Assembly (NCBI RefSeq): GCF_000020605.1
Contig: NC_012781.1
Location: forward strand, 682,001 to 746,000
From: Agathobacter rectalis ATCC 33656
GTDB lineage: Bacteria; Bacillota; Clostridia; Lachnospirales; Lachnospiraceae
DNA length: 64,000 nucleotides
Direction: 5' to 3'
Below, in pieces: positions 3,428 to 59,331 of this stretch (position 1 is its first letter; the number at the start of each line of letters is the position of its first letter). Under the pieces are notes generated by a model, which ran no database searches, was not told the DNA's origin, and saw only the letters and a program-made list of their open reading frames with translations. Both the position numbers and the translations under genes were made by a program.

Positions 3428-3464
3428 TCTAAAATAGAAATTTATGAATTTGCCGGAGAATAAA

Positions 3465-4244
3465 ATGAGTGTATTAAAAAGAATTGGAATACCAATAGTT
3501 GAACATTGTAACTTGAAATGTAAAGGTTGTTTACATTTTTGTAATTCAAATCAAGAAGAATTCTATTATGATTGTGAAGAGTTTGAACGTGATGTAATGC
3601 GGCTTTCTGAGCTTTTTGATAATATCGAAGTATTAATATTATATGGAGGCGAACCTCTTTTACATCCTAAAATAATAAGATTGCTTGAGATTGTGAGAGT
3701 GTATCTAAAAAAAACAAAGATAGAAATTCTGACGAATGGATTGCTATTACCAACTTTAGATGAAAATTTTTATCAATCAATTAAAAAATACGATGTTTGT
3801 ATTGGATGGTCAGCTTATCCAGTAGGAAAAAAAATTAACATGAAAATAGAAGATACGCTAATTTCAGAAAAGGTCGTTTATTATAAAAATGATGTTCAGA
3901 TGTTTTATGGAATATTTAATCCCTTAGGAAATTCAAATTCATATTATCAATGGAAACGCTGCAGTGGAAGAAAGTGTCATGTTTTAAGAAAAGGTTATAT
4001 TAGTGTATGTCCTGCACCGGCTGTAGAACATATTATAAACCAGTCATTTGATAAACAATTGGATTTTTCAACCAGTCGATTGAATATATATGACGAAAGT
4101 ATAGATGCTGAAAAAATACTTTATTTTCTAGAACAATCACATGATGTGTGCAAGTATTGTACAAGTGCAAGAACATTTATATGGGAGAGACAAAGCAAAC
4201 CTAAATTGGAAGACTGGTATGGAAAAGTAGGAGGTAATGAATGA
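3465..4244 (+). CDS. Radical SAM enzyme with C-terminal auxiliary cysteines (first of cluster)
   Basis: A 259-aa protein. The start at 3465 is preferred over the ATG at 3444 because GGAG lies 6 nt before it. The [4Fe-4S]-SAM motif CNLKCKGC (Cys15, 19, 22) is at the extreme N-terminus, and the GGEP motif (LYGGEPLLHP) contacts SAM. C-terminal cysteines (CSGRKC, CPAP, CKYC) could bind an auxiliary Fe-S cluster (SPASM/twitch-like). Its C-terminal layout closely matches the gene at 9410, so the two are relatives. It opens an operon and overlaps the next gene by 4 bp. The substrate is unknown; the peptide at 8186 is the inferred target. Confidence 0.85.
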   Translation: MSVLKRIGIPIVEHCNLKCKGCLHFCNSNQEEFYYDCEEFERDVMRLSELFDNIEVLILYGGEPLLHPKIIRLLEIVRVYLKKTKIEILTNGLLLPTLDENFYQSIKKYDVCIGWSAYPVGKKINMKIEDTLISEKVVYYKNDVQMFYGIFNPLGNSNSYYQWKRCSGRKCHVLRKGYISVCPAPAVEHIINQSFDKQLDFSTSRLNIYDESIDAEKILYFLEQSHDVCKYCTSARTFIWERQSKPKLEDWYGKVGGNE

Positions 4245-5164
4245 ATTCAGCGTATTTGGCAATTAGTTATATATGCAATCAAAAGTGTAGTTTTTGTCCA
4301 TGTACAAAAGAGGAAAAAAAATTTAAATATATGGATTTTCAGGAGGTAAAAGATTCTGTATTTAGATTAAAAGAAGAACTAGGAATAATGGAAGTTGTTC
4401 TTTCAGGAGGAGAGCCAACATTACATCCGAATTTTTTTGATATTATATCATATCTTGATAGCATGAATATTAAGATTACGTTATTAAGTAACGCGGAAAA
4501 ATTAGATGATATAAACTTTGTAAGAGAAATATCAAACCGTATAAATAGTAATAATATTTCTGTGATTACCACGATACATAGTCAAACAGAGGAATTACAC
4601 GAACGCGTAAATGGTTCTAAAGGCAGTTTTAGAAAAACTATAAGAGGATTAGTAAATGTTAATCAAGCAGGTTTTCATACAATAGTAAAACATTGTGTTA
4701 CAAAAGAAAATTATACGGAATTGAAAGAATTTTTTCAGTTTGTTGATAATACATTTCCACAATCCGTGGATATGCAATTGTGTAGCATAGATTATTGCGG
4801 TTTGGAAGAAGAAATAAAAAATAACTATAAACTAGAATTCCCTAGAATGCGTCCTTATTTGGAAAAAATGTTTGATAAATATCTTGAAAAAGGAGAACCA
4901 GGACGGTTGGTGTATTGCTTTAATATGCCATTATGTTCTGCGGATCCATTTTATTGGAGATTTTTTACACCAAAATCTTATGGCTATGAAGGTTATGTTT
5001 CGCCAAATAGAGATGGAAAATCGCAAAGAGCATATAATGTTGATTCAAATGTTGGATTGTATACAAATGCATGTAAAAAATGTAAAGCCAACCAATTGTG
5101 TGCGGGAACGTATAGGACAGCATTTGAGCTGTTTGGTGATAGTATTGTAAAACCGTATGTATAA
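4241..5164 (+). CDS. Radical SAM enzyme (second of cluster)
   Basis: A 307-aa protein translationally coupled (ATGA) to the previous gene. The radical SAM motif CNQKCSFC (Cys12, 16, 19) is followed by LSGGEPTLHP. The C-terminus ends with CKKCKANQLCAGTYRTAFE, a Cys-x2-Cys-x5-Cys-x-G pattern typical of an auxiliary cluster in peptide-modifying radical SAM proteins. The full-length SPASM set is not obvious, so the exact subfamily is left open. It probably performs one of several modifications on the cluster's peptide. Confidence 0.85.
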   Translation: MNSAYLAISYICNQKCSFCPCTKEEKKFKYMDFQEVKDSVFRLKEELGIMEVVLSGGEPTLHPNFFDIISYLDSMNIKITLLSNAEKLDDINFVREISNRINSNNISVITTIHSQTEELHERVNGSKGSFRKTIRGLVNVNQAGFHTIVKHCVTKENYTELKEFFQFVDNTFPQSVDMQLCSIDYCGLEEEIKNNYKLEFPRMRPYLEKMFDKYLEKGEPGRLVYCFNMPLCSADPFYWRFFTPKSYGYEGYVSPNRDGKSQRAYNVDSNVGLYTNACKKCKANQLCAGTYRTAFELFGDSIVKPYV

Positions 5165-5177
5165 AGGAAGATAAAAG

Positions 5178-5471
5178 ATGGATAAATTTGCCAGACAAAT
5201 TATTTATAGTAATAATAATGTCAATAAGTTTTTTTTGTCACCTTATATTGATATAGAAATAGGAGATGATGGAATAATTGTTGAGCGATCTGATGACGGA
5301 AAATTTATTATGTTAGGGAACCATGACACGAGTAGTATGTTGCGCATTTTAAGGGACTTACGGGAAGGAGTCACTTTTGATGAATTAAAAAAGAAAGTTG
5401 AAATTGAACTTAATGAGGAAGATGCCCTTACTTGGATTCGGGCTTTATACCAGAAAGGCATTATTGAGTAA
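5178..5471 (+). CDS. PqqD-like RiPP recognition element protein
   Basis: A 97-aa protein. Short beta-strand-like segments (YIDIEIGDDGIIVERSDDGKFIML) are followed by a three-helix half (SSMLRILRDLREGVTFDELKKKVEIELNEEDALTWIRALYQKGIIE). This is the arrangement of PqqD-type RRE proteins, which bind the leader of a precursor peptide and present it to a radical SAM maturase. The assignment rests on pattern and on position directly before a SPASM enzyme, with stop and start overlapping at 5471. A generic winged helix is the alternative. Confidence 0.7.
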   Translation: MDKFARQIIYSNNNVNKFFLSPYIDIEIGDDGIIVERSDDGKFIMLGNHDTSSMLRILRDLREGVTFDELKKKVEIELNEEDALTWIRALYQKGIIE

Positions 5472-6847
5472 TGGATGAAATGTTAGTTGAAAAGTATACA
5501 GATGAAGAAAATCATATAGTGTATAAAAAATGCAAAGCCTTTACTAATGGTAAAAAATATTTTTTATTAAACGAATTAGGGTATTCAATATTGATTGATC
5601 ATGAATTGTTTAATATGTTGCAGCAAAAAAAAGTATCTACAGATTTTGCGAGTAAGTTATTACAGCATCGACTGGCTGAATTTGATAATTTAAATCATTG
5701 TGATTTATGTACAAATTATAAGATTCGTCCAGAATTTTTTATGATTGATTTGACAACTCGCTGTAATTTGAATTGTAAATATTGTTTTCGAGATGTAAAC
5801 AATCCTGAGAATTATAAATCTATTTCTAAAGAAATGCTTAATGAAATTTGTAAATATATTTTTGATTATTGTACGAAACATGAGGTTAAGAAAATATCTA
5901 TTCAACCATGGGGTGGAGAACCTTTACTTGAAATGGAAAAAATTAAATGGATGTATGATTTTTTTGAAAATACACCTATATCTGTGCATTTTACGATTGA
6001 AACCAACGGAGTACTACTCACAGAAGAAAATGTAAAATGGTTATTTGAACATAATGTGTCAATAGGAATAAGTATTGATGGTAATAAAGAAATTCATGAT
6101 CGGCAAAGAGTGTTTGCAAATACGAAAGGGTCGTTTGAATATGTACTTCAAGGAATAAAAAATGTAAAGAAATATTATGGAGATAATTTTGGAATTATTA
6201 ACACAATAACTCGGAACAGTATTGAGCATATAGAGGATATATTGGATTTTTATGCAAAAGATATTAATATAAAACATGTTAAATTTAATTTTGTACACGA
6301 GAGTGAATTTGCAGCTAACCTATGTTTGAATAAAGAACAGGTAATAGATGGAACAAAAAGAGTCTATAAGAAAATTATGTCTTTAAATAATGAAGGATAT
6401 AATATTATAGATATGAATATTCGGCATAAATTATTGAACTTATTAATACGTGATAATTCAGATATTTGCGTATCACAAGGCTGTACAGGTGGAACAAGTA
6501 TGATTGTGTTTGACATGGAGGGCTACATTTATCCTTGTGAACTAACGGATTATATAGAAGAAAGAATTGGAAATGTTAAAGAAGCAGTAGATTTGATTAA
6601 GATAGTAAAAGAGGCAAAAGAGACAAAAGCATATTTTAAAGAAAAAGACGATGTTAGTTGTTTGTCATGCTCATGGAGATATTTTTGCAAAGGTGGTTGT
6701 AGCATAAAAGCAAAATTATCAAGAACGAAAAAAGATGATTTGGAATGTACGATAAATAGTACTTTATATCCAGAAATGATTGAATCAATTTTAAGTGAAC
6801 AAAAATTGATAAATGACTTTCTAAATATGAAAATAATTGGTGGATAA
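5471..6847 (+). CDS. Radical SAM/SPASM peptide maturase
   Basis: A 458-aa protein of normal length for the family. The N-terminal ~80 residues resemble the small domain found before the barrel in peptide maturases. The SAM cluster motif CNLNCKYC is at Cys98, 102, 105, with GGEP (QPWGGEPLLE) ~50 residues later. The C-terminal SPASM region has CTGGTSMIVFDMEGYIYPC and CLSCSWRYFCKGGC plus a late Cys, enough for two auxiliary [4Fe-4S] clusters. Such enzymes make thioether, C-C, epimer or similar modifications on ribosomal peptides. The preceding PqqD-like protein is its probable partner. Confidence 0.9.
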   Translation: MDEMLVEKYTDEENHIVYKKCKAFTNGKKYFLLNELGYSILIDHELFNMLQQKKVSTDFASKLLQHRLAEFDNLNHCDLCTNYKIRPEFFMIDLTTRCNLNCKYCFRDVNNPENYKSISKEMLNEICKYIFDYCTKHEVKKISIQPWGGEPLLEMEKIKWMYDFFENTPISVHFTIETNGVLLTEENVKWLFEHNVSIGISIDGNKEIHDRQRVFANTKGSFEYVLQGIKNVKKYYGDNFGIINTITRNSIEHIEDILDFYAKDINIKHVKFNFVHESEFAANLCLNKEQVIDGTKRVYKKIMSLNNEGYNIIDMNIRHKLLNLLIRDNSDICVSQGCTGGTSMIVFDMEGYIYPCELTDYIEERIGNVKEAVDLIKIVKEAKETKAYFKEKDDVSCLSCSWRYFCKGGCSIKAKLSRTKKDDLECTINSTLYPEMIESILSEQKLINDFLNMKIIGG

Positions 6848-6848
6848 A

Positions 6849-8081
6849 ATGGCAGATAATGATTTGATTAGAAACAAAGGAATAATGAGTGCTGCACAAA
6901 CCATGTGGACGATAGATTTCGATTCTGAACAGTCTTTAGAAATCGGCAAGGTACAAAATCAGAAATTTACTGGGAAATGCTGGATATACGCAGGACTTAA
7001 TTTATTAAGAATATTGGCAAATAGAAAAAACAGTAGGACTAGCATTATTCTTTCTGCTAACTATATAGCTTATTATGACAAATACGAAAAATCAAAATAT
7101 TTTTTTGAAAAAGTAATAGAGACAATGAAGTTGCCAAGTGATAATAGATTAGTTGAACATTTATTTAAAAATCCATGTCCAGATGCAGGACAATGGGCAA
7201 TGTTTAACAACATTATAAAGAAATATGGTATTGTTCCACAAGAATCAATGCCAGATACATATTCGGCATTAGATACAAATCAAATGAATATTTGTTTATC
7301 GACTATTTTGCGAGATTCTGGGTGTAATATAAGAAAGTTGAATATGAAAGGTGCAAGTTTAGAACAAATCAATAGTGAAGTTGAAACGAAAATGGATGAA
7401 ATTAGAAGAATATTAAGCTTGTGCCTTGGAGAACCACCAACTGAATTTCAGTATGGAAAGATGGAAAAAAAATACTCACCCATTTCGTATTATAAATCAG
7501 AGATAGGAGTAGATTTAGATAAATATTTGTGCTTGATTAATGCTCCTATGTTAAAAGTACCAATGTATAAAAAGTATTGTATTCAAAATCTTAATAATAT
7601 GTCCGAAGGAAAGAAGATAGAGTATATCAATCTACCCATAGAAACTTTAAAAGAAAAAGTCATTGAGCAGATAGCCGATGGAACGCCAGTGTGGTTTGGC
7701 TGTGATGCAGGAAAAATGATAGATAAAAAAACAGGAATTATGGATGATAATACTTTTAATGTATCACATATACTAAATACTTCGTATTTATTTTCAAAGG
7801 GAGAACAATTAGAATACCATCAGTCTGAAATGAATCATGCTATGTTGATTATCGGGATTATATTAAAGGACCAGAAGGTAGTTGGATTTAAAGTAGAAGA
7901 TTCCCATGGAAATCAAGTTGGTAAGGATGGGTACTTTTATATGTCGATAGATTGGTTTGAAAAGTATGTTTATCAAGTAGTGATTGATAAACGATATTTA
8001 TCGATGGATGAAGAAAAAATATTGGATGGAGAAAGTTTATATTTAATGCCATGGAATCCAATGGGAACATTGGCTAACTAA
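6849..8081 (+). CDS. Bleomycin hydrolase/aminopeptidase C-like cysteine protease (C1B)
   Basis: A 410-aa protein starting at the ATG right after the preceding stop, with GGTGG as ribosome site. It follows the PepC/bleomycin hydrolase plan: catalytic Cys44 in GKCWIYAGLN, the SANYIAYYDKYEKSKYFFE and GQWAMFNNIIKKYGIVP segments, His330 in NHAMLIIG, and the C-terminal GYFYMSIDWFEKYVYQVVI block. The family's catalytic Asn (ENSWG) is replaced by Asp (EDSHG, ~351). PepC is normally a housekeeping aminopeptidase. Placed directly before the precursor gene, it is more likely the dedicated leader-removal or trimming peptidase (inference). Confidence 0.85.
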   Translation: MADNDLIRNKGIMSAAQTMWTIDFDSEQSLEIGKVQNQKFTGKCWIYAGLNLLRILANRKNSRTSIILSANYIAYYDKYEKSKYFFEKVIETMKLPSDNRLVEHLFKNPCPDAGQWAMFNNIIKKYGIVPQESMPDTYSALDTNQMNICLSTILRDSGCNIRKLNMKGASLEQINSEVETKMDEIRRILSLCLGEPPTEFQYGKMEKKYSPISYYKSEIGVDLDKYLCLINAPMLKVPMYKKYCIQNLNNMSEGKKIEYINLPIETLKEKVIEQIADGTPVWFGCDAGKMIDKKTGIMDDNTFNVSHILNTSYLFSKGEQLEYHQSEMNHAMLIIGIILKDQKVVGFKVEDSHGNQVGKDGYFYMSIDWFEKYVYQVVIDKRYLSMDEEKILDGESLYLMPWNPMGTLAN

Positions 8082-8185
8082 ATTGTATTTGCGTTTGAAA
8101 AGTACATTTGTTTTGTGGTACAACTTCGAGTGCAGTTTTCAGATGCAAATGTGTCTGGAATACTAAAGAAAGGAGGTATCTGATA

Positions 8186-8362
8186 ATGAACAAATTAGAA
8201 ATGTTTTCAGAGAAGCTTGGAAAAACTATCACAATTATTGCTGAATCTGTTGAAGGACAGAAGACTTTTAAACCAGCAATGGAAGGAACAAGCAATAGCA
8301 CTGTTTCAATGATGGGATGGTGTCGTGGAGGATGGAACAACGATAGCGGTAGTGGATGGTAA
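8186..8362 (+). CDS. Putative RiPP precursor peptide (Gly/Trp-rich core)
   Basis: A 58-aa peptide with a strong ribosome site (AAAGGAGG) before the ATG at 8186. The first ~30 residues form a charged, helix-prone leader (EMFSEKLGKTITIIAES...). The C-terminal part is small and polar: a Ser/Thr/Asn run, then MMGWCRGGWNNDSGSGW, with three Trp and one Cys. There is no signal peptide or double-glycine site. It sits between modification genes and is followed by its own attenuator hairpin, the usual layout for a precursor made in excess. It has no match to any precursor family I know. Trp residues are candidate prenylation sites given the DDxxD protein next door. Confidence 0.75.
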   Translation: MNKLEMFSEKLGKTITIIAESVEGQKTFKPAMEGTSNSTVSMMGWCRGGWNNDSGSGW

Positions 8363-8399
8363 AATCACATAAGCAATAGTTTGTTTCTGTTTAGGCTGA

Positions 8400-8440
8400 C
8401 CTGTAATCTAGGTTTATCCTAGATTACAGGTTTTGTTATT
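8400..8440 (+). terminator. Attenuator/terminator after the precursor gene
   Basis: A perfect 13-bp stem (CCTGTAATCTAGG, loop TTTAT, reverse complement) is followed by TTTTGTTATT. It lies 38 bp after the precursor stop and only 18 bp before the next gene. It should make most transcripts stop after the peptide gene while some read on into the tailoring genes. Confidence 0.9.
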
Positions 8441-8457
8441 ATACGGAGGAGAATTTG

Positions 8458-9441
8458 ATGTATAGACAAAAGGAATATATGCAATTATTGAAAGAAAAAT
8501 TTTCAAAAACAGAAATTATTAATGCTATAAAATATAAAAATAGCTATGAAGAGAAAATTAAAGAAATTTCCCCAAAAAAGAATACGTTATTAGGCATAAG
8601 TATTCAAAAATCTAAAGATATATATGGGTTTGATTTGACTAAAGTCTATACATTTAATTATGTGAAATATTATTTGTGGAGAAAAGAATTTTGTAAAAAT
8701 GATGACAAAGAGTGGAAAGAGGCGGCACTTTCATTTGTCTGTTTAAGTTGCTTGTCTGATTTAATATTTGATTCAAAAAGATTGGGAGAAAAGGAAAAGC
8801 AACATGTAGCAAACATATTAACTAGAGATTATTTTCAAAAAAGTATATCTATGGATATGAGGATAATTACAGAAAATCCAATAGACATATTATATTCGAT
8901 GTTTATTAATCACATGAAAAGCTTGAAAAAATACAATTTTAAAATTTTTCTAGAGTTACAGAAGGATATTCTTAATGCATTTGAGTCAGAAATATATATA
9001 TCTACAAATAAACTAGTATTTCCTGAAAAAATAAATATTGATTTAATAACAAGTAAATCGATAGAATTTGTGTATAGTTGTCTATATTTATCTGCAGTTG
9101 ATACGCATGATTTTATTAGAATGAAGAAATGTGCGGTTGCTACAGCAAAATTATTTTGGCTTGTCGATGATCTCTGTGACTTATATGATGATATTGAAAA
9201 TCAGATTAAAAATTCTATATTGTTTTTACAAAATGAAGAAGTGAGTTCGTTAGAAAATTCAATTGATTTTGTTTTCGAAAACATGGATACCTTTTTTGAA
9301 GTGATAGAAGAAAATTTAGAATTATTAAAAAATAATCTATCATATGATGTTTATATATTTTTTCTATATGAGTTATACGATTGGGTAGAAGCAGTTAATG
9401 TAAGAATGGATGAAAAAAATGAGAGTATTGGTGTTAGGTAA
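8458..9441 (+). CDS. Class I isoprenoid synthase-like protein (candidate peptide prenyltransferase)
   Basis: A 327-aa, mostly helical protein starting at ATG 8458 after GGAGGA. Residues ~197-250 match the second half of polyprenyl-synthase folds: a Lys-Ser helix start, then AKLFWLVDDLCDLYDD with DDxxD at 237-241, then DIENQIKNSIL in place of the GKDLxxGK tail. A possible degenerate first Asp motif is SDLIFDSKRLGE (~100-110). ComQ, which prenylates a Trp of the ComX pheromone, is a divergent member of the same superfamily with a similar size. Position after a Trp-rich peptide, and a pathway IPP isomerase downstream, support a ComQ-like role; this is inference. Confidence 0.55.
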   Translation: MYRQKEYMQLLKEKFSKTEIINAIKYKNSYEEKIKEISPKKNTLLGISIQKSKDIYGFDLTKVYTFNYVKYYLWRKEFCKNDDKEWKEAALSFVCLSCLSDLIFDSKRLGEKEKQHVANILTRDYFQKSISMDMRIITENPIDILYSMFINHMKSLKKYNFKIFLELQKDILNAFESEIYISTNKLVFPEKINIDLITSKSIEFVYSCLYLSAVDTHDFIRMKKCAVATAKLFWLVDDLCDLYDDIENQIKNSILFLQNEEVSSLENSIDFVFENMDTFFEVIEENLELLKNNLSYDVYIFFLYELYDWVEAVNVRMDEKNESIGVR

Positions 9442-10555
9442 TGGAAGAAAATCGCTACAGCTTGCACATATTATTTCTGCTTGGAAAGAATATACATTGG
9501 AAGGTGTGGTAGATTATCAAAATATCAATTGGGAAAAGAGTGAAAATATTGAAGGAAAAATGATTGAAATTGTTTCTCCGATGAAGGCAATAGAAATGTA
9601 TCAGGATTTGTCAATTGATGCGTTTATTATGCCATCGTTAGAAGAAGATGTTAATAACAGAATGTATAGATTTTTAGTAGTGAATGATGTGTCCGAATGT
9701 GATATCTTATATGGTCAAGAGTCACTATTTCATAAAGTAGAATTAAAGCAAGAAGGTTTGATTACTCAGTATATAAGTAGAGATGAACTTGATACGATGG
9801 AAATCCATGTTGCTGATCATTGTAATATGAATTGCAAAAATTGTTCCATGTTTTGTGGACTTGTCAAAGAGCCTAAATATTCAGATTTTATGCAAACACA
9901 GAATAGTTTATATATTCTCAAAGGAATATTTAAACATATAAAACGTATTCGGGTAATTGGAGGGGAGCCTTTACTCAACAAAGAGTTAGACAAGTATCTA
10001 TATATGATTAGAGATATTTATCCGTATTCTGATATTAGAGTTATTACAAATGGAATTCTTGTTACTGGAATGAAAGAGAATTTGATAACGGCGTTTAAAG
10101 AAACATCGTCAAAACTTGTGGTTACAAGTTATTTGCCGTTAATGAAAAAAATTGATAAAATTAATAATTTTCTAAAGAATAAAGAGATAAATTATGAAAT
10201 CTCTGATACTATCACTGATTTTCAAAAAATATATGATTATACAGGACAGCAGGATGAAAAACTATCATTTAATGCATGCCATTGGAAAGGCGCATGTGCT
10301 ACTTTATATGAGAATCAAATTGCGCCATGCTTTGTACCATTTGTTATTAAATATTTAGCAGAAAACTTTGATTTAAATATTTCGCCATCAGGAACTATGA
10401 TATTAAATGCTGACAATATGAATAAAGATAAAATTCGAAAACTATTTAATACTCCATTTGATATGTGCAAATATTGTGCTCCTAGAGGTATTACATCAAA
10501 ATGGGAAATGTGCGATAAAAATTCAGTTAATAATATATTTGATTGGAGTATATAA
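9410..10555 (+). CDS. Rossmann-like domain fused to radical SAM enzyme
   Basis: A 381-aa protein overlapping the previous gene by 32 bp (ATG at 9419 is an alternative start). Residues 1-~115 begin with MRVLVLGNGRKSLQLAHIISAW, a Rossmann-type glycine pattern as in nucleotide-binding domains. The radical SAM half has CNMNCKNC (Cys138, 142, 145) and VIGGEPLLNKE, plus C-terminal cysteines (CHWKGAC, CFVPF, CKYC) laid out as in the 3465 gene. It is therefore a paralog of that enzyme with an added N-terminal domain. The substrate is unknown. Confidence 0.8.
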   Translation: MKKMRVLVLGNGRKSLQLAHIISAWKEYTLEGVVDYQNINWEKSENIEGKMIEIVSPMKAIEMYQDLSIDAFIMPSLEEDVNNRMYRFLVVNDVSECDILYGQESLFHKVELKQEGLITQYISRDELDTMEIHVADHCNMNCKNCSMFCGLVKEPKYSDFMQTQNSLYILKGIFKHIKRIRVIGGEPLLNKELDKYLYMIRDIYPYSDIRVITNGILVTGMKENLITAFKETSSKLVVTSYLPLMKKIDKINNFLKNKEINYEISDTITDFQKIYDYTGQQDEKLSFNACHWKGACATLYENQIAPCFVPFVIKYLAENFDLNISPSGTMILNADNMNKDKIRKLFNTPFDMCKYCAPRGITSKWEMCDKNSVNNIFDWSI

Positions 10556-10557
10556 GA

Positions 10558-11199
10558 ATGGAAAAAATTGACTTTTTTGAAAAGTTTAATACATTTCAAA
10601 TATACTATAAGCAATTGTTAAAAGATAACATTTATGACAATGGTAATCTAGCGTCATATATTAGAACGTATTATATAGAAAATAATAAAATACTATTTCA
10701 TGTATCGGAAATACTTGATTTAAGTGTTATTGTTCCTAAAGGTAATTTTGATATGTATCAAAAAAAATTTAGTGAAAAAGTGTTCGCAACTTCTAATCCA
10801 TATGAAATATGGTTATATGCTTGTCGAGCTGTGTTGGGAGAAATGCATGAGAAAAACAGAGTGTGTATTTATCCAGATAATCCGTTTCTTTTTTTTGAAA
10901 CAGGATATTATTATTTGAAAAGAAGTGTGGCAGTATATGTTTTAAATGCGGAAGATTTTTTTCCAGTATTAAAGCTAAAATCTCATTTTATTGAGAATAA
11001 AAATTGTTTTGATAATGAATGGATTGCTAATCATAATATTAATCCTTTATATCAATATACAATTGATCGAATTCCAAAAGAATTTACGAAGTATTATGAT
11101 GTTTACTATTTGAATAATAAATCTAATGTAGTATATCCAAATTCATTAGAAGAATTACGATATTTCAGAAAAAACAATATGGTTCGAAAAATAGAGTAG
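10558..11199 (+). CDS. Unrecognised cluster protein
   Basis: A 213-aa protein starting at ATG 10558, two bases after the previous stop, with GGAG upstream. It is rich in Tyr, Phe and Asn, soluble, with no signal peptide or membrane segment. I recognise no family. Its tight packing between a radical SAM gene and an HD-hydrolase gene suggests it belongs to the same pathway. Confidence 0.7.
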   Translation: MEKIDFFEKFNTFQIYYKQLLKDNIYDNGNLASYIRTYYIENNKILFHVSEILDLSVIVPKGNFDMYQKKFSEKVFATSNPYEIWLYACRAVLGEMHEKNRVCIYPDNPFLFFETGYYYLKRSVAVYVLNAEDFFPVLKLKSHFIENKNCFDNEWIANHNINPLYQYTIDRIPKEFTKYYDVYYLNNKSNVVYPNSLEELRYFRKNNMVRKIE

Positions 11200-11214
11200 T
11201 TATGAGGAAACACA

Positions 11215-11901
11215 ATGAAAAAACTTTTTATGTCGGAATATCTCAATTATGTTTTTCAAAAAAAAGTGTGGATAGTAGAAAATATTTATATGATAAAGAT
11301 AATGCAACTATATTATAGTAGTTATAATAAAAAATTTATATCACACACATTTTTCACAGATGCAATAAAAAATTCAAGTTTTCCAATTTTTTTGAATTAT
11401 GTTAATAATTTAAATGATAAGATTTTGTATCACAGCCAAGTGCATGGAGTTAAACATATACTAAATGTAACATTTTTTTCATTTTTAATAGCGTGTAATG
11501 AAAACATGAGTGCAAATGATATGGGAATTCTTTTAGAGACAGCACTTTATCATGATATTGGAAGAGATGACGATATGGAAGATAGTGATCATGGGCATAG
11601 AGGAGCAAAAAAGATATTGATGCATATTTCGGATAATAAAATGGATATGATTATACCAGCGGTTATTCATGCTCATTCTTTATTAGATGAGGAAGCATAT
11701 CAGATTTTTAGACAATACAATATTGAAAAATCGCAATATGCTAGATATTCAAAAATATTGTCAATTATCAAAGATGCGGATGCTTTAGATCGTTTTAGAT
11801 TGCGCCCTAATTCTCTGAACCCCGAATATTTTCGAATTGATTTTTCGAAAATATTGATAAGTCTTGCATGTGTGTTGTCAAAGGTAGAGTGGCATGAGTA
11901 G
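11215..11901 (+). CDS. HD-domain phosphohydrolase
   Basis: A 228-aa protein. Metal ligands of an HD fold are visible: His81 (HGVKHI), the His113-Asp114 pair in [11 protein letters not shown], later His residues (HGHRG, HAHS) and Asp187 in [13 protein letters not shown] proteins hydrolyse phosphate esters or nucleotides in the cytoplasm. In this cluster it might act on an isoprenyl diphosphate or nucleotide intermediate, but nothing in the sequence fixes the substrate. It overlaps the next gene by 8 bp. Confidence 0.8.
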
Positions 11902-12475
11902 AAAAATTAATAATATTATATTCAGACAGCGGGTATGTTGTTATAAAGATACATATTTGTGTATTGATGATATTGATGGTCTGAAAATTCATGGAAAATT
12001 AAAGTTGAATTGGAATCCAATTAGTAAGTCAATTCGGACGGGGCAAGCTACTTTTTTTAGAATGGACAACCATTCTCAGTTGAGAGTTGGTGGAAATTTT
12101 GATGTTTTCTATGGTAACGATGTACACATATTCAGCGGTGGAAAATTGGAATTAGGGAGTGGGTTTATTAATTCATACGGTAAAATTGAGTGTCATAAAC
12201 ATATAAAAATAGGAAAAAACTGTGCAGTAGGACCGTATACTATCATTCTTGATTCCGATGGGCATCAAATATTTGGTAAACGTAATACAGATGAAGTGAT
12301 TATTGGAAATAACGTATGGATTGGTGCTAGAGTTACTATATTAAAAGGTGTGCGTATAGGAGATGGTGCAGTTATTGCAGCAGGAACTATTGTGAATAAA
12401 GATGTACCAGCAAGAGCTTTGGCTGCTGGTAATCCAATGCATTTGATATGTGATAATGTTGAGTGGACTAATTAG
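11894..12475 (+). CDS. Hexapeptide-repeat (LbH) acyltransferase
   Basis: A 193-aa protein with left-handed beta-helix repeats: [21 protein letters not shown] (the loop His is the usual catalytic base), then [48 protein letters not shown]. This is the maltose/galactoside O-acetyltransferase type, which transfers acetyl from acetyl-CoA. It is longer at the N-terminus than the core family. It may acetylate the product or a sugar; the acceptor is unknown. Confidence 0.88.
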
Positions 12476-12545
12476 TTAAAAATATTCGAGGGGATTGATT
12501 GGTAATAGATTGTTGTATTAGTAAATGACAAATCGAGGTATAAGT

Positions 12546-13178
12546 ATGAATGATTATATTATTCTTGTAAATGAACAGGATGAAACGATTGGATATTCAG
12601 AGAAAATGGATGCTCACAAAAATGGAAAGTTACATCGAGCGTTCTCAATCTTCATATTTGATTGGAATACTAAAAAGATGCTCATACAGAAAAGAGCATT
12701 TGAAAAGTATCATTCAGGAGGGCTTTGGACTAATGCTTGTTGTTCACATCCACTTAAAGATGAAACCATGGTGAGATGTTTAAATACAAGACTAGCAGAG
12801 GAGCTAGGATTGTGTACAGACTTTAATATTAAAGCTCCATCGGATTGTGGTTTACTAATTCATGGTGAGGATGTAATCTATAGTTGCGGTAAATTTTCAT
12901 ATTTTGCTTCCTTTGGTGAAGTTGTTGAAAATGAAATAGACCATGTTTTTTTATACAGTCCAATTAAAAGTAAAATTGATTTGACAGCTATATCTTTTAA
13001 TAAACAAGAAATAGAAGAAATCAAATGGATAAGCATTGAAGAACTGAAAAGTTGGATGGAGAGTAATCCTGAGGATTTTACAGCGTGGTTCAAATCTGCT
13101 TTTGAACTTGCTTATATTGTGTTTTGCAGACAAGCTGGAAATATAGATATGTTCTTTGACAATGATGAGTATAGATAA
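12546..13178 (+). CDS. idi: Isopentenyl-diphosphate delta-isomerase, type I
   Basis: A 210-aa Nudix-fold enzyme interconverting IPP and DMAPP. The start at 12546 has GAGG 9 nt upstream; the ATG at 12525 lacks one. Hallmarks: HRAFSIFIFD (metal His), GGLWTNACCSHP with the catalytic Cys (~65), and RLAEELGL with the metal Glu pair. Length is slightly above E. coli Idi (182 aa). Bacteria using the MEP pathway obtain both C5 units directly and do not need Idi, so a copy linked to a DDxxD protein suggests dedicated DMAPP supply for the cluster. Confidence 0.92.
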   Translation: MNDYIILVNEQDETIGYSEKMDAHKNGKLHRAFSIFIFDWNTKKMLIQKRAFEKYHSGGLWTNACCSHPLKDETMVRCLNTRLAEELGLCTDFNIKAPSDCGLLIHGEDVIYSCGKFSYFASFGEVVENEIDHVFLYSPIKSKIDLTAISFNKQEIEEIKWISIEELKSWMESNPEDFTAWFKSAFELAYIVFCRQAGNIDMFFDNDEYR

Positions 13179-13195: not shown

Positions 13196-14683
13196 ATGAA
13201 GAGAGCAATTTGTTTTATACTTTGCGCAATTACGATAATGTCATCTACATATACGGCATTAGCTACAGAAACAACTGATATATCTTATAATACGCTTTCT
13301 GTTGAGTTCTCGGATAACCTTGGAACAGCAGAAGATCTTAATGTAATGGTGACAGAAAATCACCTTTATGTAGACGCAGAACAGTTAGGAGATAGACTTG
13401 GTTATCAGGTTGAAGTTGGAAATGAATATGTAGCAATTTACAATAAAAATTTTAGTAATACAGTTCCTTATGGTCTTACTACTTTTTATTATGATAGTAC
13501 AAAAGTAAGACATATGTTATTTAATAAAATGGTTGATTATGAAGCTCCATTTAAGATTGTTAAGAATTCTGATGGTGTGTGGATTCCATTTGAATTTAGT
13601 CTTTTATTATTAAATAGTTCTGATGTTGTGCTTGATAATCAGGTGCACATTGAAATGCCACAAAAAAATATCGTAGATATTTATATGGATATATTAAAAA
13701 ATAATGATAGATATTTATTTGATTGGAAAAGCGATGCCGGTGCTTCAGAAGGTTCAATATTTGCCATGGGGACAGGAGCATATTTTGTTCAGGTATTTAG
13801 TGGTATTTTGGATAAAGATGGAGCGTCGTGGTCTCAATTAATAGATAGTTTTTACCTGAAAATGGATAGCTATGATCGAAAATATGCAGAGAGCTTTGCT
13901 AGAATGTTTTGTACATACTCAGATGAAGAATTAACTCTTAATGCAAAAGCAATGAAAGAGAAAATGAAACCTTTTAATGGGGATAATTGGGTTGCAAAAT
14001 CAATAAAAAAAGTTGACGATATTATAGATGATAATATTGGAGATTTATCTGAAAAAACAGCTGATTTAAAGAAAAAAATTGATGTAGAAAATGGCACATC
14101 TGTAGCGAAGTTTAACAAATCATATCAAGAACTTGATAAAATGTGTAATACAGCAGATTATTTTTCAGATATGACAGATCCATTTTTAACCGTTTCAAAA
14201 GAATTTAAGAATGTTACCAGCTTTTTGGATGTATTTTATAAGATATCGGAAGTTATTGGTTATGCCAGCGAGTTTAAAAATCAGGACGAATTTGCAGTAA
14301 AATCATTAGATACATTAATAAAAAAATCTGATTCGAGCTGTGTAATGTCTAAGGCTATGAAAGATAGCATGGGAGATTATAAAAAGACACTGGAAACCGA
14401 TATTGTAGCATATTCTGCGTATAATTATCTGATGAATAATATGACAGATTTATTTACAGATACTATAGATATATCAACTACAATACTGGATATGGATTCT
14501 AAGCTATACTTGTTAGCGTGGGATATTGCTAAAGGGGCGATTCCGCTTGTCAAAAATAGTCTAAGCAATACTGACTGTTTTTTACAGAGTATGTATGCGG
14601 GAATTATACAATCTGACACCTTTAGCACATATATAAACAAACGAAAGCATCGGTGTACAAGGGGTACAAACGAGATAAAATAG
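13196..14683 (+). pseudogene. Large secreted protein, 5' half, interrupted by the ICE
   Basis: It starts at ATG 13196 after AGGAGA. A signal peptide (hydrophobic, cleavage near ALA-TE at ~24) leads into an N-terminal domain with YHLYVDAEQLGDRLGYQV-like copper-amine-oxidase-type repeats and then a long helical region. Native sequence stops at about 14646; the last ~12 codons and stop come from the ICE end. The homolog at 59315 continues through ...KRDAVFKD..., and the missing part is found at 57528-58629. The full protein would be about 850 aa. Function unknown; probably cell-surface or secreted. Confidence 0.9.
14651..14668 (+). repeat. ICE left terminal inverted repeat
   Basis: CGGTGTACAAGGGGTACA; it matches the reverse complement of 57504-57521 at 16 of 18 positions. 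Both copies lie about 5 bp inside the junction with host DNA and probably form the recombinase binding arms. Confidence 0.8.
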
Positions 14684-14709: not shown

Positions 14710-16218
14710 TCAGATTTTCCACTCTATCTGAACACGGTCGCTGGTGGCCTTGATCGTAGAGATCAAACCATCGGCGGCTTTTCTTTTGTCGTCAAAATCT
14801 ATGCTCTCCCAGTTGTCGAGATAATAGGACAACTTCTTTATCTGCTGGGGCGATATGGTTTCAACGCTCAATTCGGCGATTGCCTTTGAAATGGTCTGGC
14901 GTCGGGTGTCCAGTTCTTCAATTTTTTTGTTGGCATAGGCAAGCAAGGTCGCATTGGCTCCGGTCAGCGTATCCAGCAGCTTTTCAATTTCTGCCTCCAC
15001 CTGTGCCAGCTCCACTTGATAGGTGGTCAGCTTCGGATTGACTTTTTCCTCCCTGCCGTGGAGTATCTGAAAGTCTTTGAACTTCTCCTGCATGGCCGAG
15101 AAAATGAATTGCTCAAATTCTTCTTTGCGGATTTTCCCGCAGCCCGGACAGCCTTTGTTTTCCGTCCGTTTGGTGCAGCGGAAATAGCCTGTACTGTTTG
15201 GTACATGGGTGGCTTTCAGCGCATACCCACAATGCCCGCATTTGATTTTTCCGGCCAGCCAAGTATTTTTCGGTTTCCGCCCCTGCTGGAAGGTGGTATT
15301 TGCCATGAGCTTTTTCCGGCATTTCAGCCATGTGTCAGAGGAAATGAGTGCTTCGTGGGGAGCGATAACAAGTATCTGGTCTTTTAAGCACCTGTCCTTG
15401 TCCTCCTTCACATCCCGTCCCTGATAAAGATAGCAGCCGTTTGTTCCGGCAAAGTCAGAAGCGTCATTGATAATCGCTGCGCCCTGGCTTTTGAAAAATT
15501 CGTACAGCTCCAAATCGGCCTGTGCGTAAACGGGGTTTCTTAAAAGCTGGGAAAGAAATGTACGGAACATGGATTTGCCATAAATTTTTATGTCATGTTC
15601 CTCGAAGTATCGGGTAATATCTCCGAAGGAGGTTTCCGGTTCAGCGTACATTTCAAACATCAGCCGAACATGGTCGGCGGCTACGGGGTCGGCAACCATT
15701 TTCTTTGTGCGGATACCCTCTACCACAGTAGGCTCTAACTGATAACCGTATGGTGCCTGTCCGCTCATGTGAAAGCCTTTCAGGCACCGTGAATAGTAGG
15801 CGTCTGTGACACGCTTCTGAATTGTCTCACGTTCAAGCTGGGCGAATACAATGCAGATATTCAGCATGGCCCGGCCCATCGGGGTCGAAGTATCAAACTT
15901 TTCTGTGGATGATACAAACTCCACATCATACTCTTGAAACAGCTCCATCATCGTTGCAAAGTCCAGAATAGAGCGGCTTATACGGTCCAGTTTATACACG
16001 ATGACCCGCCTGACCTTTCCCTTGCGGATCTCGCCCAGCAGCTTTTGAAACTCCGGCCTGTCCGTATTTTTACCGGAATAGCCTTTGTCCTTGAATACCC
16101 GGCAGCTACCACCTTTCAATTCATACTTGCAAAAGTCGATCTGACTTTCAATGCTGATACTGTCCTTGCGGTCTACTGACTGTCTTGCGTAAATACAATC
16201 TTCTCTGATAAATTCCAT
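14710..16218 (-). CDS. Large serine recombinase (ICE integrase)
   Basis: A 502-aa protein starting at 16218, with AAGGAG 7 nt upstream. The N-terminal catalytic domain has YARQS with nucleophile Ser14, then VYKLDRISRS and the Arg-rich active site. A recombinase domain (~170-280) and a zinc-ribbon domain (CGHCGYALKA ... CTKR ... CPGC) precede a coiled-coil tail. This is the TnpX/TndX type that excises and integrates through a circular intermediate. It lies 60 bp from the left ICE end and reads toward it. Its promoter (16267-16325) shares an operator module with the mobilization operon. Confidence 0.95.
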   Translation of the reverse strand: MEFIREDCIYARQSVDRKDSISIESQIDFCKYELKGGSCRVFKDKGYSGKNTDRPEFQKLLGEIRKGKVRRVIVYKLDRISRSILDFATMMELFQEYDVEFVSSTEKFDTSTPMGRAMLNICIVFAQLERETIQKRVTDAYYSRCLKGFHMSGQAPYGYQLEPTVVEGIRTKKMVADPVAADHVRLMFEMYAEPETSFGDITRYFEEHDIKIYGKSMFRTFLSQLLRNPVYAQADLELYEFFKSQGAAIINDASDFAGTNGCYLYQGRDVKEDKDRCLKDQILVIAPHEALISSDTWLKCRKKLMANTTFQQGRKPKNTWLAGKIKCGHCGYALKATHVPNSTGYFRCTKRTENKGCPGCGKIRKEEFEQFIFSAMQEKFKDFQILHGREEKVNPKLTTYQVELAQVEAEIEKLLDTLTGANATLLAYANKKIEELDTRRQTISKAIAELSVETISPQQIKKLSYYLDNWESIDFDDKRKAADGLISTIKATSDRVQIEWKI

Positions 16219-16261
16219 ATTGGGCTCCTTTCCTTGTTGGAATGGAGCTACCAACCTTACA

Positions 16262-18225: not shown

Positions 18226-19092
18226 TTATTCGGTGTTAAGTTCTACTAATACAACCTCTGGACGATTATTAAATCGGAATGGAATAATACTATTTCCAAG
18301 GCCGCGGCTAACAACCATATTTGTCTTTTCGTCTGTATAAAGGCCGGAATCATATTTAGGAAACAGTCCTTGATTGGGGGCAACGAGCCCCCCAATAAAA
18401 GGTAATCGAAACTGCCCTCCGTGTGCATGACCACATAAAACCAAATCAACACCACAGCATACATAGGTTTCAAATAACTCTGGCCGATGTGATAGCAGTA
18501 TAGTGTAACTGTTTTCGTCATCAATAAGGCTATTCAATTTTGTGTTGACCATGGCTGGCGCTTCATTAAACATATCGCCCTTAATCGTAAAGTCAGAATC
18601 AGAAAGCCCGATAAGGGTAATCATTTCGTTGTTATGCACTAACTGTATTGCTTCATCTTCAAGGACAGTTACGCCAGACGCTTCAAGCCCTGTTTTGAAT
18701 TGATCATAATGTGAGAAGTTAGCTTCGTGGTTTCCAGTTACAAAGTAGACAGGGGCTATTTGAACAGCTTGTTTTATAAAATCAAACGCAATCTCAATGT
18801 CTGTATGTCCAGCATCGATTAAATCTCCAGTTATCACAATAATATCCGGTTCGTGTTCAGACAGCAATTCTATCAATTCTGTATTGCTTTCTCCAAATTC
18901 AGCATTATGCAAGTCGGACACTTGTGCAATCCGAAAATTAGAAAAGGCAGATGCTATGCGATCGCTGGAGATATTAACCATACTTACCATCAATGCTGAA
19001 TTGCCCCATATAGTATAGATTATCAAAACCAGCAGTATAGTTGTTAATACACAAATCTTCACCAATACTCTGGTGGAAAGGATTTTTTTCAT
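18226..19092 (-). CDS. Membrane-anchored metallophosphoesterase
   Basis: A 288-aa protein. An N-terminal transmembrane anchor (residues ~10-30) precedes a calcineurin-like phosphoesterase domain: IAQVSDLHNAEFG (metal Asp and His), ITGDLIDAGH (GD motif), VTGNHEA (GNH), and LLSHRP and LCGHAHGGQF (C-terminal His motifs). This is the YkuE-type family acting on phosphoesters such as lipid or wall precursors outside the cell. It shares a 40-bp promoter element with the ABC operon, so it probably belongs to the same two-component regulon. Confidence 0.88.
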   Translation of the reverse strand: MKKILSTRVLVKICVLTTILLVLIIYTIWGNSALMVSMVNISSDRIASAFSNFRIAQVSDLHNAEFGESNTELIELLSEHEPDIIVITGDLIDAGHTDIEIAFDFIKQAVQIAPVYFVTGNHEANFSHYDQFKTGLEASGVTVLEDEAIQLVHNNEMITLIGLSDSDFTIKGDMFNEAPAMVNTKLNSLIDDENSYTILLSHRPELFETYVCCGVDLVLCGHAHGGQFRLPFIGGLVAPNQGLFPKYDSGLYTDEKTNMVVSRGLGNSIIPFRFNNRPEVVLVELNTE

Positions 19093-19130
19093 TTTTTCCT
19101 CTCTTTCATCAACTTAATTATAAAAAAATC

Positions 19131-19170
19131 AGCTTACAAACAGGTGAATTTCAACTTACGAATTTGTAAG
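19131..19170 (-). promoter_or_regulatory. Putative response-regulator box before phosphoesterase gene
   Basis: A 40-bp block, 33 of 40 identical to 22294-22333, with repeated CTTAC/GTAAG half-sites. A TATAAT lies downstream on the minus strand (19113-19122 area). Confidence 0.7.
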
Positions 19171-19175
19171 ACAAA

Positions 19176-19203
19176 AGTGGGCGGCTTCTAAAGCCACCCG
19201 CTT
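19176..19203 (-). terminator. Terminator of the ABC/two-component operon
   Basis: On the minus strand GGGTGGCTT-TAG-AAGCCGCCC is followed by ACTTTTGTC; it lies 12 bp after the permease stop. Confidence 0.7.
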
Positions 19204-19214
19204 CAAAAGTAGAA

Positions 19215-21575: not shown

Positions 21576-22260
21576 TTGTTTTTCCTCCCAAATCCGTCAA
21601 AACGCCATCTGATACCCGGAACACCCGATCAACGGATGCAGTCAAATCCTTATTGTGGGTAATCATCAGGATTGTTTGCTGATAGCGACGGGACGCCTGC
21701 GTAAGCAGGGCGATAACATCCTGACTATTCTTGCTGTCCAGATTGCCAGTAGGTTCATCTGCCAGAATCAGTTTGGGCTTTGTGATTAACGCCCGGCCAA
21801 TGGCAACACGCTGCTGCTGTCCGCCGGATAGTTGGCTCGGCAGGTGATGTCGACGCTCGGTAAGTCCCAAGAGTTCCAAAATTTCTTCTACTGCTGCCGG
21901 GTCTGGTTTGCGATAGTCCAAAAGAAGCGGAAACATGATATTCTGCTCCACATTCAGCTCGGAAACCAACTGAAAGGATTGGAAGATAAAGCCGATATTA
22001 CGACGGCGGAAAATCGTGCGCTGTTCCTCTTTCATGGAAAACAGGTCTTGTTCATCAATCCAAATGTGGCCGGAAGTAGGGGTATCCAAAGCTCCAATAC
22101 AGTTCAGTAATGTGCTTTTGCCAGAACCGGATTCACCCACAACGGCAGCAAATTCGCCTTTATCCAGGGAGAAGGAAACCTTCTTCAACGCTTCGACTTT
22201 CGCCTCACCCTTGCCATAAGTTTTACATAAATCTTGTACTTTCAATATTTCCATAGTCAT
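21559..22260 (-). CDS. ABC transporter ATP-binding protein (MacB/LolD type)
   Basis: 233 aa from ATG 22260 (AAAGGAGG upstream; ATG 22254 is possible). Walker [11 protein letters not shown]-loop FQSFQL, signature [15 protein letters not shown], Walker [14 protein letters not shown] and the His switch ITHN are all intact. It powers the FtsX permease encoded downstream. A response-regulator-type box lies 34-73 bp upstream. Confidence 0.95.
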
Positions 22261-22293
22261 CAGTACCTCCTTTCTCAAAAGGATAGCAAAAAC

Positions 22294-22333
22294 AGCTTAC
22301 AAGCAGGTGAATTTGACCTTACAGATCCGTAAG
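22294..22333 (-). promoter_or_regulatory. Putative response-regulator box before ABC operon
   Basis: A 40-bp block nearly repeated at 19131-19170. It overlaps the 3' end of the histidine kinase gene, so the transporter is likely transcribed from its own promoter under the two-component system. Confidence 0.7.
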
Positions 22334-58725: not shown

Positions 58726-59331
58726 ATGAAAAAATGCAAATTTATAAAATCAGAAATAGCAATTGCGATTCTAGGATGTTCAATCATTTTTACAGCCTGT
58801 GACGTTAATACTGACAAGAAAGTAGAAAAGCAGGCAAACAAGGTGGTTGACGCTGTAGAATCCAAAGATATAACAAAATTGGATGCTATCATTAACGGAA
58901 CCGATGAAATAAAAGCAGACGAGGAATTAAAAGATTTCTTCGAGACAGACACCGAAGCAAATCAGAAAAATGGATTGATGTCTAAAATTATAAAGCATGA
59001 CACAATCAAGGTGAAAAAGGTCGGAAAAGATACAGTTACATATAAAATAACAGCACCTGATTTTTCCAAGTATTTTACCGAGATGAAAAAGAGTGAAGTG
59101 ACAGAGGAAAATATAGAATCATTTACAGATGATTATATTTCAAATGCTGAAAAAGTGACTAATGAAGTGGAAATTCCATATACATATAAGTATGGAATTT
59201 ATTCAGCAGAATACGATACTGAGGAATTTGTCAATGCATTGACCGGCAATTTGGTTACTGCTTATCAGGAACTGATGCAGGATGTACAAAAGGAACTTAG
59301 TGAGGAGACTGGTGATGAAAAAAATAATTAG
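58726..59331 (+). CDS. Putative lipoprotein
   Basis: 201 aa from ATG 58726 (GGAAGGAG). Lipoprotein signal with FTACD lipobox (Cys ~25), then a DUF5105-like alpha/beta domain: KQANKVVDAVESKDITKLDAIINGTDEIKADEELKDFF ... DTIKVKKVGKDTVTYKITAPDFSKYF. It overlaps the next gene's start by 17 bp, so the two are co-translated and may work together at the surface. Confidence 0.8.
   Translation: MKKCKFIKSEIAIAILGCSIIFTACDVNTDKKVEKQANKVVDAVESKDITKLDAIINGTDEIKADEELKDFFETDTEANQKNGLMSKIIKHDTIKVKKVGKDTVTYKITAPDFSKYFTEMKKSEVTEENIESFTDDYISNAEKVTNEVEIPYTYKYGIYSAEYDTEEFVNALTGNLVTAYQELMQDVQKELSEETGDEKNN

What the first reader, a model, noticed from the sequence alone, without database searches (positions are those of the whole stretch)
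3465..13178. Radical-SAM peptide pathway linked to isoprenoid genes: candidate prenylated RiPP system
Seen: a compact co-directional AT-rich cluster with four radical SAM enzymes, a PqqD-like protein, a PepC-like peptidase, a 58-aa Trp/Gly-rich peptide, a DDxxD isoprenoid-synthase-like protein, an HD hydrolase, an LbH acyltransferase and Idi. Known: radical SAM/SPASM plus PqqD modify ribosomal peptides; ComQ prenylates Trp of ComX; Idi makes DMAPP. Inference: the product is a radical-SAM-modified, prenylated (perhaps acylated) peptide. I know of no described RiPP class with this gene set. No exporter or immunity gene is evident inside it.
Basis: partly seen in the sequence, partly recalled or inferred. 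Interest (0 to 1): 0.95.

Follow-up and report, generated by a model that had tools for sequence, protein, structure and literature searches.

The report
Radical-SAM peptide cluster with isoprenoid genes
A gut-type bacterium carries a gene cluster that very probably makes a small peptide cross-linked at tryptophans by radical enzymes, and next to it genes that look able to supply and perhaps attach an isoprenoid, a combination for which we found no described example.

Summary
The cluster is real. Its core is a RiPP system: a 58-aa precursor with a strong ribosome-binding site and an attenuator-like hairpin directly behind it, a stand-alone RiPP recognition element (RRE; predicted fold matches solved RREs), a seven-Cys SPASM radical-SAM enzyme, an HxsC-like partner radical-SAM enzyme and an aminopeptidase C. 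A locus in another Lachnospiraceae genome keeps RRE + SPASM + partner + homologous precursor; a third, more distant one keeps the layout. In the three precursors 6 of 7 non-terminal Trp have Asn/Asp/Arg two residues on (180 of 50,000 shuffles), the pattern of three-residue cyclophane (triceptide) enzymes. The prenylation half is much weaker. Idi is a genuine type I enzyme, but the DDxxD protein is an orphan: no family hit, no homologue found, no usable model, and its match to prenyl synthases is within the range of shuffles. It lacks the Gln before the second Asp motif that known Trp prenyltransferases share, and the closest relative cluster has FkbM and U32 genes instead of isoprenoid genes. 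Best reading: a triceptide-like radical-SAM RiPP, perhaps isoprenoid-modified at its C-terminal Gly-Trp. The RiPP is near certain, the prenylation below even odds.

The parts
3444..4244 (+). rSAM1: radical SAM enzyme (CNLKCKGC), paralogue of rSAM4; nearest relatives found in the genus sit (by eye) in surface-polysaccharide-type loci
4241..5164 (+). rSAM2: HxsC-like partner radical SAM enzyme with C-terminal Cys cluster
   Evidence: NCBIfam HxsC 112.8 bits (cut-off 267.9); relatives in L053 and L058
5178..5471 (+). Stand-alone RiPP recognition element (PqqD-like)
   Evidence: AF2 model pLDDT 76.4; Foldseek/VIA best matches are RRE-bearing proteins
5471..6847 (+). Radical SAM/SPASM maturase, CNLNCKYC plus seven SPASM cysteines (C338, C356, C397, C400, C406, C410, C426)
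   Evidence: 38% identical relative in L053
6849..8081 (+). C1B peptidase (aminopeptidase C / bleomycin hydrolase type): Cys43, His329, Asp350 where the solved relative has Asn; C-terminal arm kept (numbers count from the first residue of window:6852-8078)
8186..8362 (+). Precursor peptide, 58 aa, leader MNKLEMFSEKLGKTI..., Trp/Gly/Asn-rich C-terminus ending GSGW
8398..8432 (+). Terminator/attenuator-like hairpin directly behind the precursor, 15 pairs
   Evidence: z -5.33
8458..9441 (+). DDxxD protein, orphan, D101xxxD105 and D237DxxD241; possible isoprenoid synthase-like enzyme
9410..10555 (+). rSAM4: N-terminal region of about 125 aa plus radical SAM domain (CNMNCKNC)
10558..11199 (+). Orphan protein of 213 aa, no family, no relative found
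11215..11901 (+). HD-domain protein (putative phosphohydrolase)
   Evidence: Pfam HD 29.2 bits (cut-off 22); no PDB relative of use
11894..12475 (+). Left-handed beta-helix (hexapeptide) O-acetyltransferase-type protein
12525..13178 (+). Type I isopentenyl-diphosphate isomerase (Idi), just over the NCBIfam cut-offs

Best explanation
The cluster encodes a triceptide-like radical-SAM RiPP that is probably also isoprenoid-modified. Well supported by sequence: the RRE, SPASM enzyme, HxsC-like enzyme and 58-aa precursor are one maturation unit. Inferred: the RRE binds the leader (around LEMFSEKLGKTI); the SPASM enzyme, with the HxsC-like partner, joins the indole of Trp45 to Arg47 and of Trp50 to Asn52 as three-residue cyclophanes; the aminopeptidase C trims the leader from the N-terminus, stopping at the rings. 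More speculative: Idi supplies DMAPP, the DDxxD protein uses it (or a longer prenyl diphosphate) to modify the remaining free C-terminal Trp58 of the Gly-Trp end, and rSAM1/rSAM4, the HD and LbH proteins do further tailoring. The hairpin behind the precursor would give much precursor and less of the downstream enzymes.
For: RRE fold. Seven-Cys SPASM pattern. Homologous precursor (Smith-Waterman score 49 reached by 7 of 5,000 shuffles; leader alone 19 of 5,000) next to RRE, SPASM (38%) and rSAM2 (30%) in L053. Similar layout with a 34-aa peptide in L058. The same 12 bases GAAAGGAGGTAT before the start codon and a hairpin directly behind the peptide in all three. Trp+2 is Asn/Asp/Arg for 6 of 7 non-terminal Trp, reached by 180 of 50,000 shuffles, against 2-3 of 7 at the six other offsets tried; these are acceptor residues of known Trp three-residue cyclophane enzymes (PMC11002830, passages). 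Idi over its cut-offs, in a genome with one PF00348 prenyl synthase gene elsewhere. C-terminal Gly-Trp is a favoured end for the Trp prenyltransferase PalQ (PMC13290415, passages).
Against: The DDxxD protein has no detectable relative and no significant link to prenyl synthases: 15 of 2,000 shuffles score higher and 2 the same, and hhalign is not significant. Trp stands where ComQ-like enzymes, PalQ and Ord1 share a Gln just before the second Asp motif, and a DDxxD second motif is reported as unsuitable for ComQ-type Trp prenylation (PMC5331326, passages). L053 also ends in Trp but has no isoprenoid genes nearby. The SPASM protein is far below the cut-off of every named cyclophane family. The Asn/Asp/Arg set and core boundaries were chosen after seeing the sequences.
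Confidence: 0.4

Rival explanations
1. Radical-SAM RiPP beside a separate small-terpenoid or lipid pathway: the DDxxD protein is a class I terpene synthase-like enzyme, and rSAM4, HD, LbH and Idi tailor a terpenoid that is not attached to the peptide.
For: A strong terminator-like hairpin separates the precursor from the DDxxD operon. The four best relatives of rSAM4 in the genus (L054-L057, which also match rSAM1) lie in polysaccharide-type loci, not RiPP loci (read by eye). The Gln of Trp prenyltransferases is missing.
Against: rSAM1, upstream of the RRE, and rSAM4, in the second half, are related to each other (27%), which ties the halves. All 11 genes and the peptide gene are co-directional and in one low-GC block.
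Confidence: 0.25
2. Radical-SAM RiPP in which the DDxxD motif is a chance match: the protein is another helical tailoring or binding protein, and Idi serves general metabolism.
For: No family, structure or genome match of value; the prenyl synthase profile score is within the shuffle range.
Against: The weak match puts D237DxxD241 on the second Asp motif in register, a DxxxD lies upstream at the end of a helix of the low-confidence model, and Idi follows in the same run of genes, four genes further on. Type I Idi over cut-off is rare in the genus (5 of 62 genomes, own included).
Confidence: 0.2
3. The cross-links are thioethers (ranthipeptide/sactipeptide), not Trp cyclophanes.
For: The SPASM enzyme scores almost as well with the PapB ranthipeptide family (147.5 bits) as with DynA (152.0); there is one Cys in the window core (WCR), and L058's peptide has two.
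Against: Cys is not conserved at matching places between the window and L053 precursors, while Trp and WNN are.
Confidence: 0.2
4. A peptide-derived intracellular cofactor (as for PQQ or mycofactocin): RRE, radical SAM enzymes and an exopeptidase cut a small modified unit out of the precursor, and isoprenoid genes give it a membrane tail.
For: No exporter or immunity gene seen by eye in the window or L053 clusters; an exopeptidase is present; the sister cluster has a methyltransferase and a UbiU-like U32 gene, i.e. quinone-type decorations.
Against: No dedicated dehydrogenase partner was seen beside it; U32 and FkbM families have many other roles, and the UbiU match is far below cut-off (62 of 440 bits); exporters may lie elsewhere in the genome.
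Confidence: 0.1

Closest known systems
Triceptides / three-residue cyclophane enzymes (XncB, OscB, MscB, YhhB)
   Same: SPASM radical SAM enzyme next to a small precursor with Trp-x-Asn/Arg/Asp motifs
   Different: SPASM protein far below the cut-offs of these families as far as listed; stand-alone RRE, an HxsC-like second radical SAM enzyme, aminopeptidase C and isoprenoid genes
His-Xaa-Ser system (HxsB/HxsC)
   Same: Paired radical SAM enzymes: SPASM protein HxsB-like (142.7 bits), rSAM2 HxsC-like (112.8 bits)
   Different: Both far below cut-off (370, 267.9); no His-Xaa-Ser repeat in the precursor
ComX/ComQ and PalX/PalQ (trans-IDS-like Trp prenyltransferases)
   Same: Small peptide with Trp near or at the C-terminus beside an Asp-motif protein; DxxxD spacing and C-terminal Gly-Trp recall PalQ
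   Different: No sequence link shown; Trp for the conserved Gln; radical SAM genes; no histidine kinase beside the peptide
PQQ and mycofactocin clusters (recalled)
   Same: RRE + radical SAM + peptidase, no exporter seen
   Different: Different precursor; no PqqB/PqqC- or MftD-like gene seen
Prenylated cyanobactins and lanthipeptides (PagF, MppC)
   Same: Prenylated macrocyclic RiPPs as a concept (PMC12715784, section 3 part 1 read)
   Different: Those use alpha-beta-beta-alpha prenyltransferases; none was recognised here

Membership tests
RiPP (general) | Small precursor encoded beside a leader-binding RRE and modifying enzymes | tested here: met
   homologous arrangement in L053
RiPP (general) | Modified peptide product made from the precursor | not testable with these tools
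   needs expression and mass spectrometry
RRE (PqqD-like) domain | Three strands then three helices, winged-helix RRE fold | tested here: met
SPASM radical SAM maturase | CxxxCxxC plus CX9-15GX4C ... CX2CX5CX3C ... C (motif recalled) | tested here: met
   C98/C102/C105; C338, C356, C397, C400, C406, C410, C426; Pfam SPASM itself only 18.3 of 21.5 bits
Triceptides | SPASM enzyme belongs to a named cyclophane-forming family | tested here: not met
   YhhB 122.1 of 445 bits, GrrM/OscB 92.3 of 310, FxsB 87.1 of 370, DynA (dynobactin) 152 of 450 (best 25 of 73 families shown)
Triceptides | Aromatic-x-Asn/Asp/Arg motifs in the core | tested here: met
   6 of 7 non-terminal Trp in 3 precursors, 180 of 50,000 shuffles; residue set taken from PMC11002830 passages after the sequences were seen
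Ranthipeptide / sactipeptide | Conserved donor Cys in the core | tested here: not met
   one Cys in the window core, none at a matching place in L053
His-Xaa-Ser system | HxsB and HxsC over cut-off with His-Xaa-Ser precursor | tested here: not met
   precursor has no such repeat
Canonical trans-prenyl synthase (PF00348) | Matches the family profile | tested here: not met
   no Pfam hit at E <= 1; own profile of 28 sequences 3.1 bits, 15 of 2,000 shuffles higher
Isoprenoid synthase superfamily | Class I all-helical fold | tested here: inconclusive
   single-sequence model pLDDT 36.7, helices only; Foldseek with it uninformative
ComQ/PalQ-type Trp prenyltransferase | Gln just before the second Asp motif (Q197 before D200 in PalQ) | tested here: not met
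   W234 before D237; feature from PMC10853753 and PMC13290415; rests on the weak alignment
ComQ/PalQ-type Trp prenyltransferase | Two Asp pairs of DxxxD spacing (as in PalQ) | tested here: inconclusive
   D101/D105 and D237/D241 present; no chance control was run for this spacing
Type I Idi | Over curated cut-off | tested here: met
   127.3 of 127 and 106.4 of 105.8 bits
C1B peptidase (aminopeptidase C) | Cys-His-Asn triad and C-terminal arm (recalled) | tested here: inconclusive
   Cys43 and His329 kept, Asp350 for Asn, arm kept

The most novel reading that the evidence does not exclude
The radical-SAM peptide is the seed of a membrane-bound, quinone-like redox cofactor of strict anaerobes: Trp units are cross-linked on the RRE-bound precursor, cut out by the exopeptidase, and decorated like a quinone. 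Here the decoration would be an isoprenoid tail (Idi + DDxxD protein), and in the sister cluster L053 methylation and O2-independent hydroxylation (FkbM + UbiU-like U32 proteins).
Probability: 0.07. Interest if true: 0.92.

Novelty: new variant of a known kind. Interest (0 to 1): 0.62.

Why it matters
If the prenylation reading holds, it would be, as far as my searches show, the first radical-SAM RiPP with an isoprenoid group and would add a very divergent branch to the peptide Trp prenyltransferases of isoprenoid-synthase type (ComQ, ChrPC, PalQ). Even without it, the RRE + SPASM + HxsC-like set with Trp-x-Asn/Arg/Asp precursors looks like an undescribed group of Trp-cross-linked peptides in Lachnospiraceae whose tailoring is swapped between loci: isoprenoid genes here, methyltransferase and UbiU-like genes in L053. 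It is directly testable by co-expression in E. coli.

Tried and rejected
Structure of the DDxxD protein: single-sequence model pLDDT 36.7; Foldseek with it gave only meaningless matches, best E 1.0. I did not fold it on an alignment with prenyl synthases, because that would be circular. Its relatives: none in genome contigs (pattern scan, close relatives only), viral contigs or plasmids; in 299 genomes of the family sample, own included, one other match at E 1.02e-3; in 398 of the phylum sample, own included, five others at E 1.0e-3 to 9.1e-3, two of them in frames with several stops and one with a single stop. No PDB sequence match up to E 10.

Considered and set aside: a native housekeeping Idi. 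The four other over-cut-off Idi genes of the genus are 40-42% identical to this one and share one neighbourhood of their own (AzlC/AzlD-like and coaBC-like genes by eye). The coaBC-like part of that neighbourhood does exist in the own genome, just right of the island, so the chromosomal region is the same but the gene is not a close orthologue. No sign of the system on deposited plasmids or phages for the proteins tried: DDxxD, SPASM and the 10558 protein against plasmids (none), rSAM4 against phages (one 24% match). Other radical SAM hits: 31 of 397 genomes at E <= 1e-10, own included; 15 of 392 at E <= 1e-15, own included. I fetched 11 neighbourhoods of such rSAM2 hits and read all 11 (L053, L058-L062, L133-L137); only L053 (168 bits) and L058 (80.8 bits) showed the maturase-peptide layout; L136 has a SPASM + HxsC-like pair with an HxsD-like small protein (by eye) and no peptide that I saw. 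The remaining hits were read only as short loci in a tblastn table, or not at all (those). The genus search (8 of 62, own included) gave no close relative. The second genome-contig scan chose weak patterns and returned only the L053 locus again. The viral scan with the SPASM alignment gave 31 radical SAM loci with at most 35% identity in the best segment; I did not read them.

Not in print: no described radical-SAM prenylated RiPP appeared in the listings of searches of the held open-access library (some listings were cut, e.g. 20 of 31 and 15 of 130); most subscription journals are not in it. The review of RiPP leader proteases PMC10885120 does not contain the terms bleomycin hydrolase, PepC or C1B. 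Of the papers, I saw passages of PMC11002830, PMC5331326, PMC9062424 and PMC10885120, the outline and section 3 part 1 of 2 of PMC12715784, section 9 and passages of PMC13290415, and parts 1-3 of 4 of PMC10853753.

Full report
What is there. The window is 64 kb of a 3.45-Mb single-contig genome, of the same family as G105, whose record is titled uncultured Lachnospiraceae. From 3,444 to 13,178 eleven genes and one peptide gene run in one direction, often overlapping, at 27-34% GC against 46% in the first kilobase and 40-59% over the neighbouring mobile element.

The precursor. 58 aa, ribosome-binding site GAAAGGAGGTAT, a 15-pair hairpin with a T-rich tail directly behind it (z -5.33, 0 of 200 shuffles as stable). 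L053 (G105) has a PqqD-like gene, SPASM (38%), rSAM2 (30%) and a 63-aa peptide with the same 12 bases before its start and a hairpin behind (z -6.37, 0 of 200; without a T run on that strand). The two peptides align better than chance: 7 of 5,000 shuffles reach the score for the whole, 19 of 5,000 for the leader alone, 97 of 5,000 for the core alone. L058 (G409) has rSAM2 (28%), SPASM (23%), a PqqD-like gene and a 34-aa peptide with the same 12 bases and a hairpin (z -3.81, 1 of 200).

Likely chemistry of the core. Non-terminal Trp and the two residues after: WCR, WNN (window); WMN, WNN, WDH, WED (L053); WSR (L058). Asn/Asp/Arg stands at +2 in 6 of 7 cases (180 of 50,000 shuffles; 2-3 of 7 at the six other offsets tried; two precursors alone 5 of 6, 260 of 20,000 shuffles). 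XncB joins Trp to Arg or Asn, and OscB Trp to Asn or Asp, two residues on (PMC11002830, passages). The set of residues and the core boundaries were chosen with the sequences in view, so the figure is indicative. Cys is not conserved between window and L053, which speaks against thioethers.

The isoprenoid half. Idi is just over both curated cut-offs and aligns along its length to solved Idi. In the genus 5 of 62 genomes, own included, have one over cut-off; the other four are 40-42% identical to it and share one neighbourhood of their own. The own genome has one PF00348 prenyl synthase gene. The DDxxD protein is an orphan. Against a profile of 28 prenyl synthases (28 of 29 loci gave a usable ORF) it gets 3.1 bits with D237DxxD241 on the second Asp motif, but 15 of 2,000 shuffles score higher and 2 the same, and 1 of 253 other ORFs is higher; hhalign gives probability 1%, with a score exceeded by at least 6 of 240 real proteins and at least 6 of 300 shuffles. 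It has D101xxxD105 and D237xxxD241, like D89/D93 and D200/D204 of PalQ (PMC10853753), but Trp234 where PalQ has Gln197, a residue that the trans-IDS-like Trp prenyltransferases and Ord1 share. The precursor ends in Gly-Trp, an end that PalQ favours; yet L053 ends in Trp too, without isoprenoid genes. There the genes behind the peptide are an FkbM methyltransferase, a protein with a weak U32 match and a clear U32 protein (98.5 bits; best NCBIfam match UbiU, 62 of 440 bits). So prenylation is possible, not shown, and not a feature of the class.

The rest. rSAM1 and rSAM4 are related to each other (27%); the four best relatives of rSAM4 in the genus, L054-L057, lie among polysaccharide-type genes (read by eye). 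The LbH protein is of the O-acetyltransferase type. The HD protein and the 10558 protein gave no further clue (one search had one other match in 230 genomes, E 7.7e-4 over stop codons).

Setting. In a close relative (G336, 99% identical at the left flank) the stretch between etfA and glmS is about 6.5 kb of mostly other genes; only a 191-base piece resembles the window (62487-62677, 79%). The cluster thus lies in a variable chromosomal spot and is accessory. The conserved left flank ends at window position 977; the right one begins about 80 bases beyond the window.

Verdict. Radical-SAM RiPP: about 0.9. Trp three-residue cyclophanes: about 0.5. Isoprenoid on the peptide: about 0.4. These are judgements, not computed. 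Novelty: a new variant of radical-SAM RiPPs; the isoprenoid part would make it remarkable if shown.

Noticed in passing
about 14684-57531: A mobile element of about 43 kb (GC 40-59%, serine recombinase at 14710-16254 on the - strand) seems to lie inside a gene: by eye the 13196-14683 product and the start of the 57532-58629 product correspond to successive parts of the 985-aa product at 59282-62239.
   Followed up: partly
13196-14683 and 59282-62239: Two related large secreted-looking proteins (71% identical over residues 17-483 of the shorter); the one scanned (13196) has no Pfam hit. The first sits directly behind idi.
   Followed up: no
18226-24243: ORFs that look by eye like an ABC transporter with a large FtsX-like permease, a sensor kinase and a response regulator, inside the mobile element.
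   Followed up: no
L053:2434-7996: Sister RiPP cluster with FkbM methyltransferase and two U32-type genes (one UbiU-like, one weak), suggesting methylated and hydroxylated products of the same peptide type.
   Followed up: partly
L058:113-2950: Third locus: rSAM2-like, 34-aa peptide with CGWSRC, SPASM, PqqD-like, at the edge of a contig.
   Followed up: partly
window 977 to about 80 bases beyond the window end: The 63-kb stretch between etfA and glmS is replaced by about 6.5 kb of mostly other genes (PTS-type and oxidoreductase-like ORFs by eye) in the near-identical relative G336: a variable hotspot. In four genus members a native idi lies near the coaBC-like gene that here follows glmS.
   Followed up: partly
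6849-8081: Active-site Asn of aminopeptidase C replaced by Asp (Asp350), with His instead of Trp two residues on; may mark a specialised peptidase.
   Followed up: no
L136:5547-9231: SPASM + HxsC-like + HxsD-like genes (by eye) in another family of the order, probably a plain His-Xaa-Ser type system.
   Followed up: no
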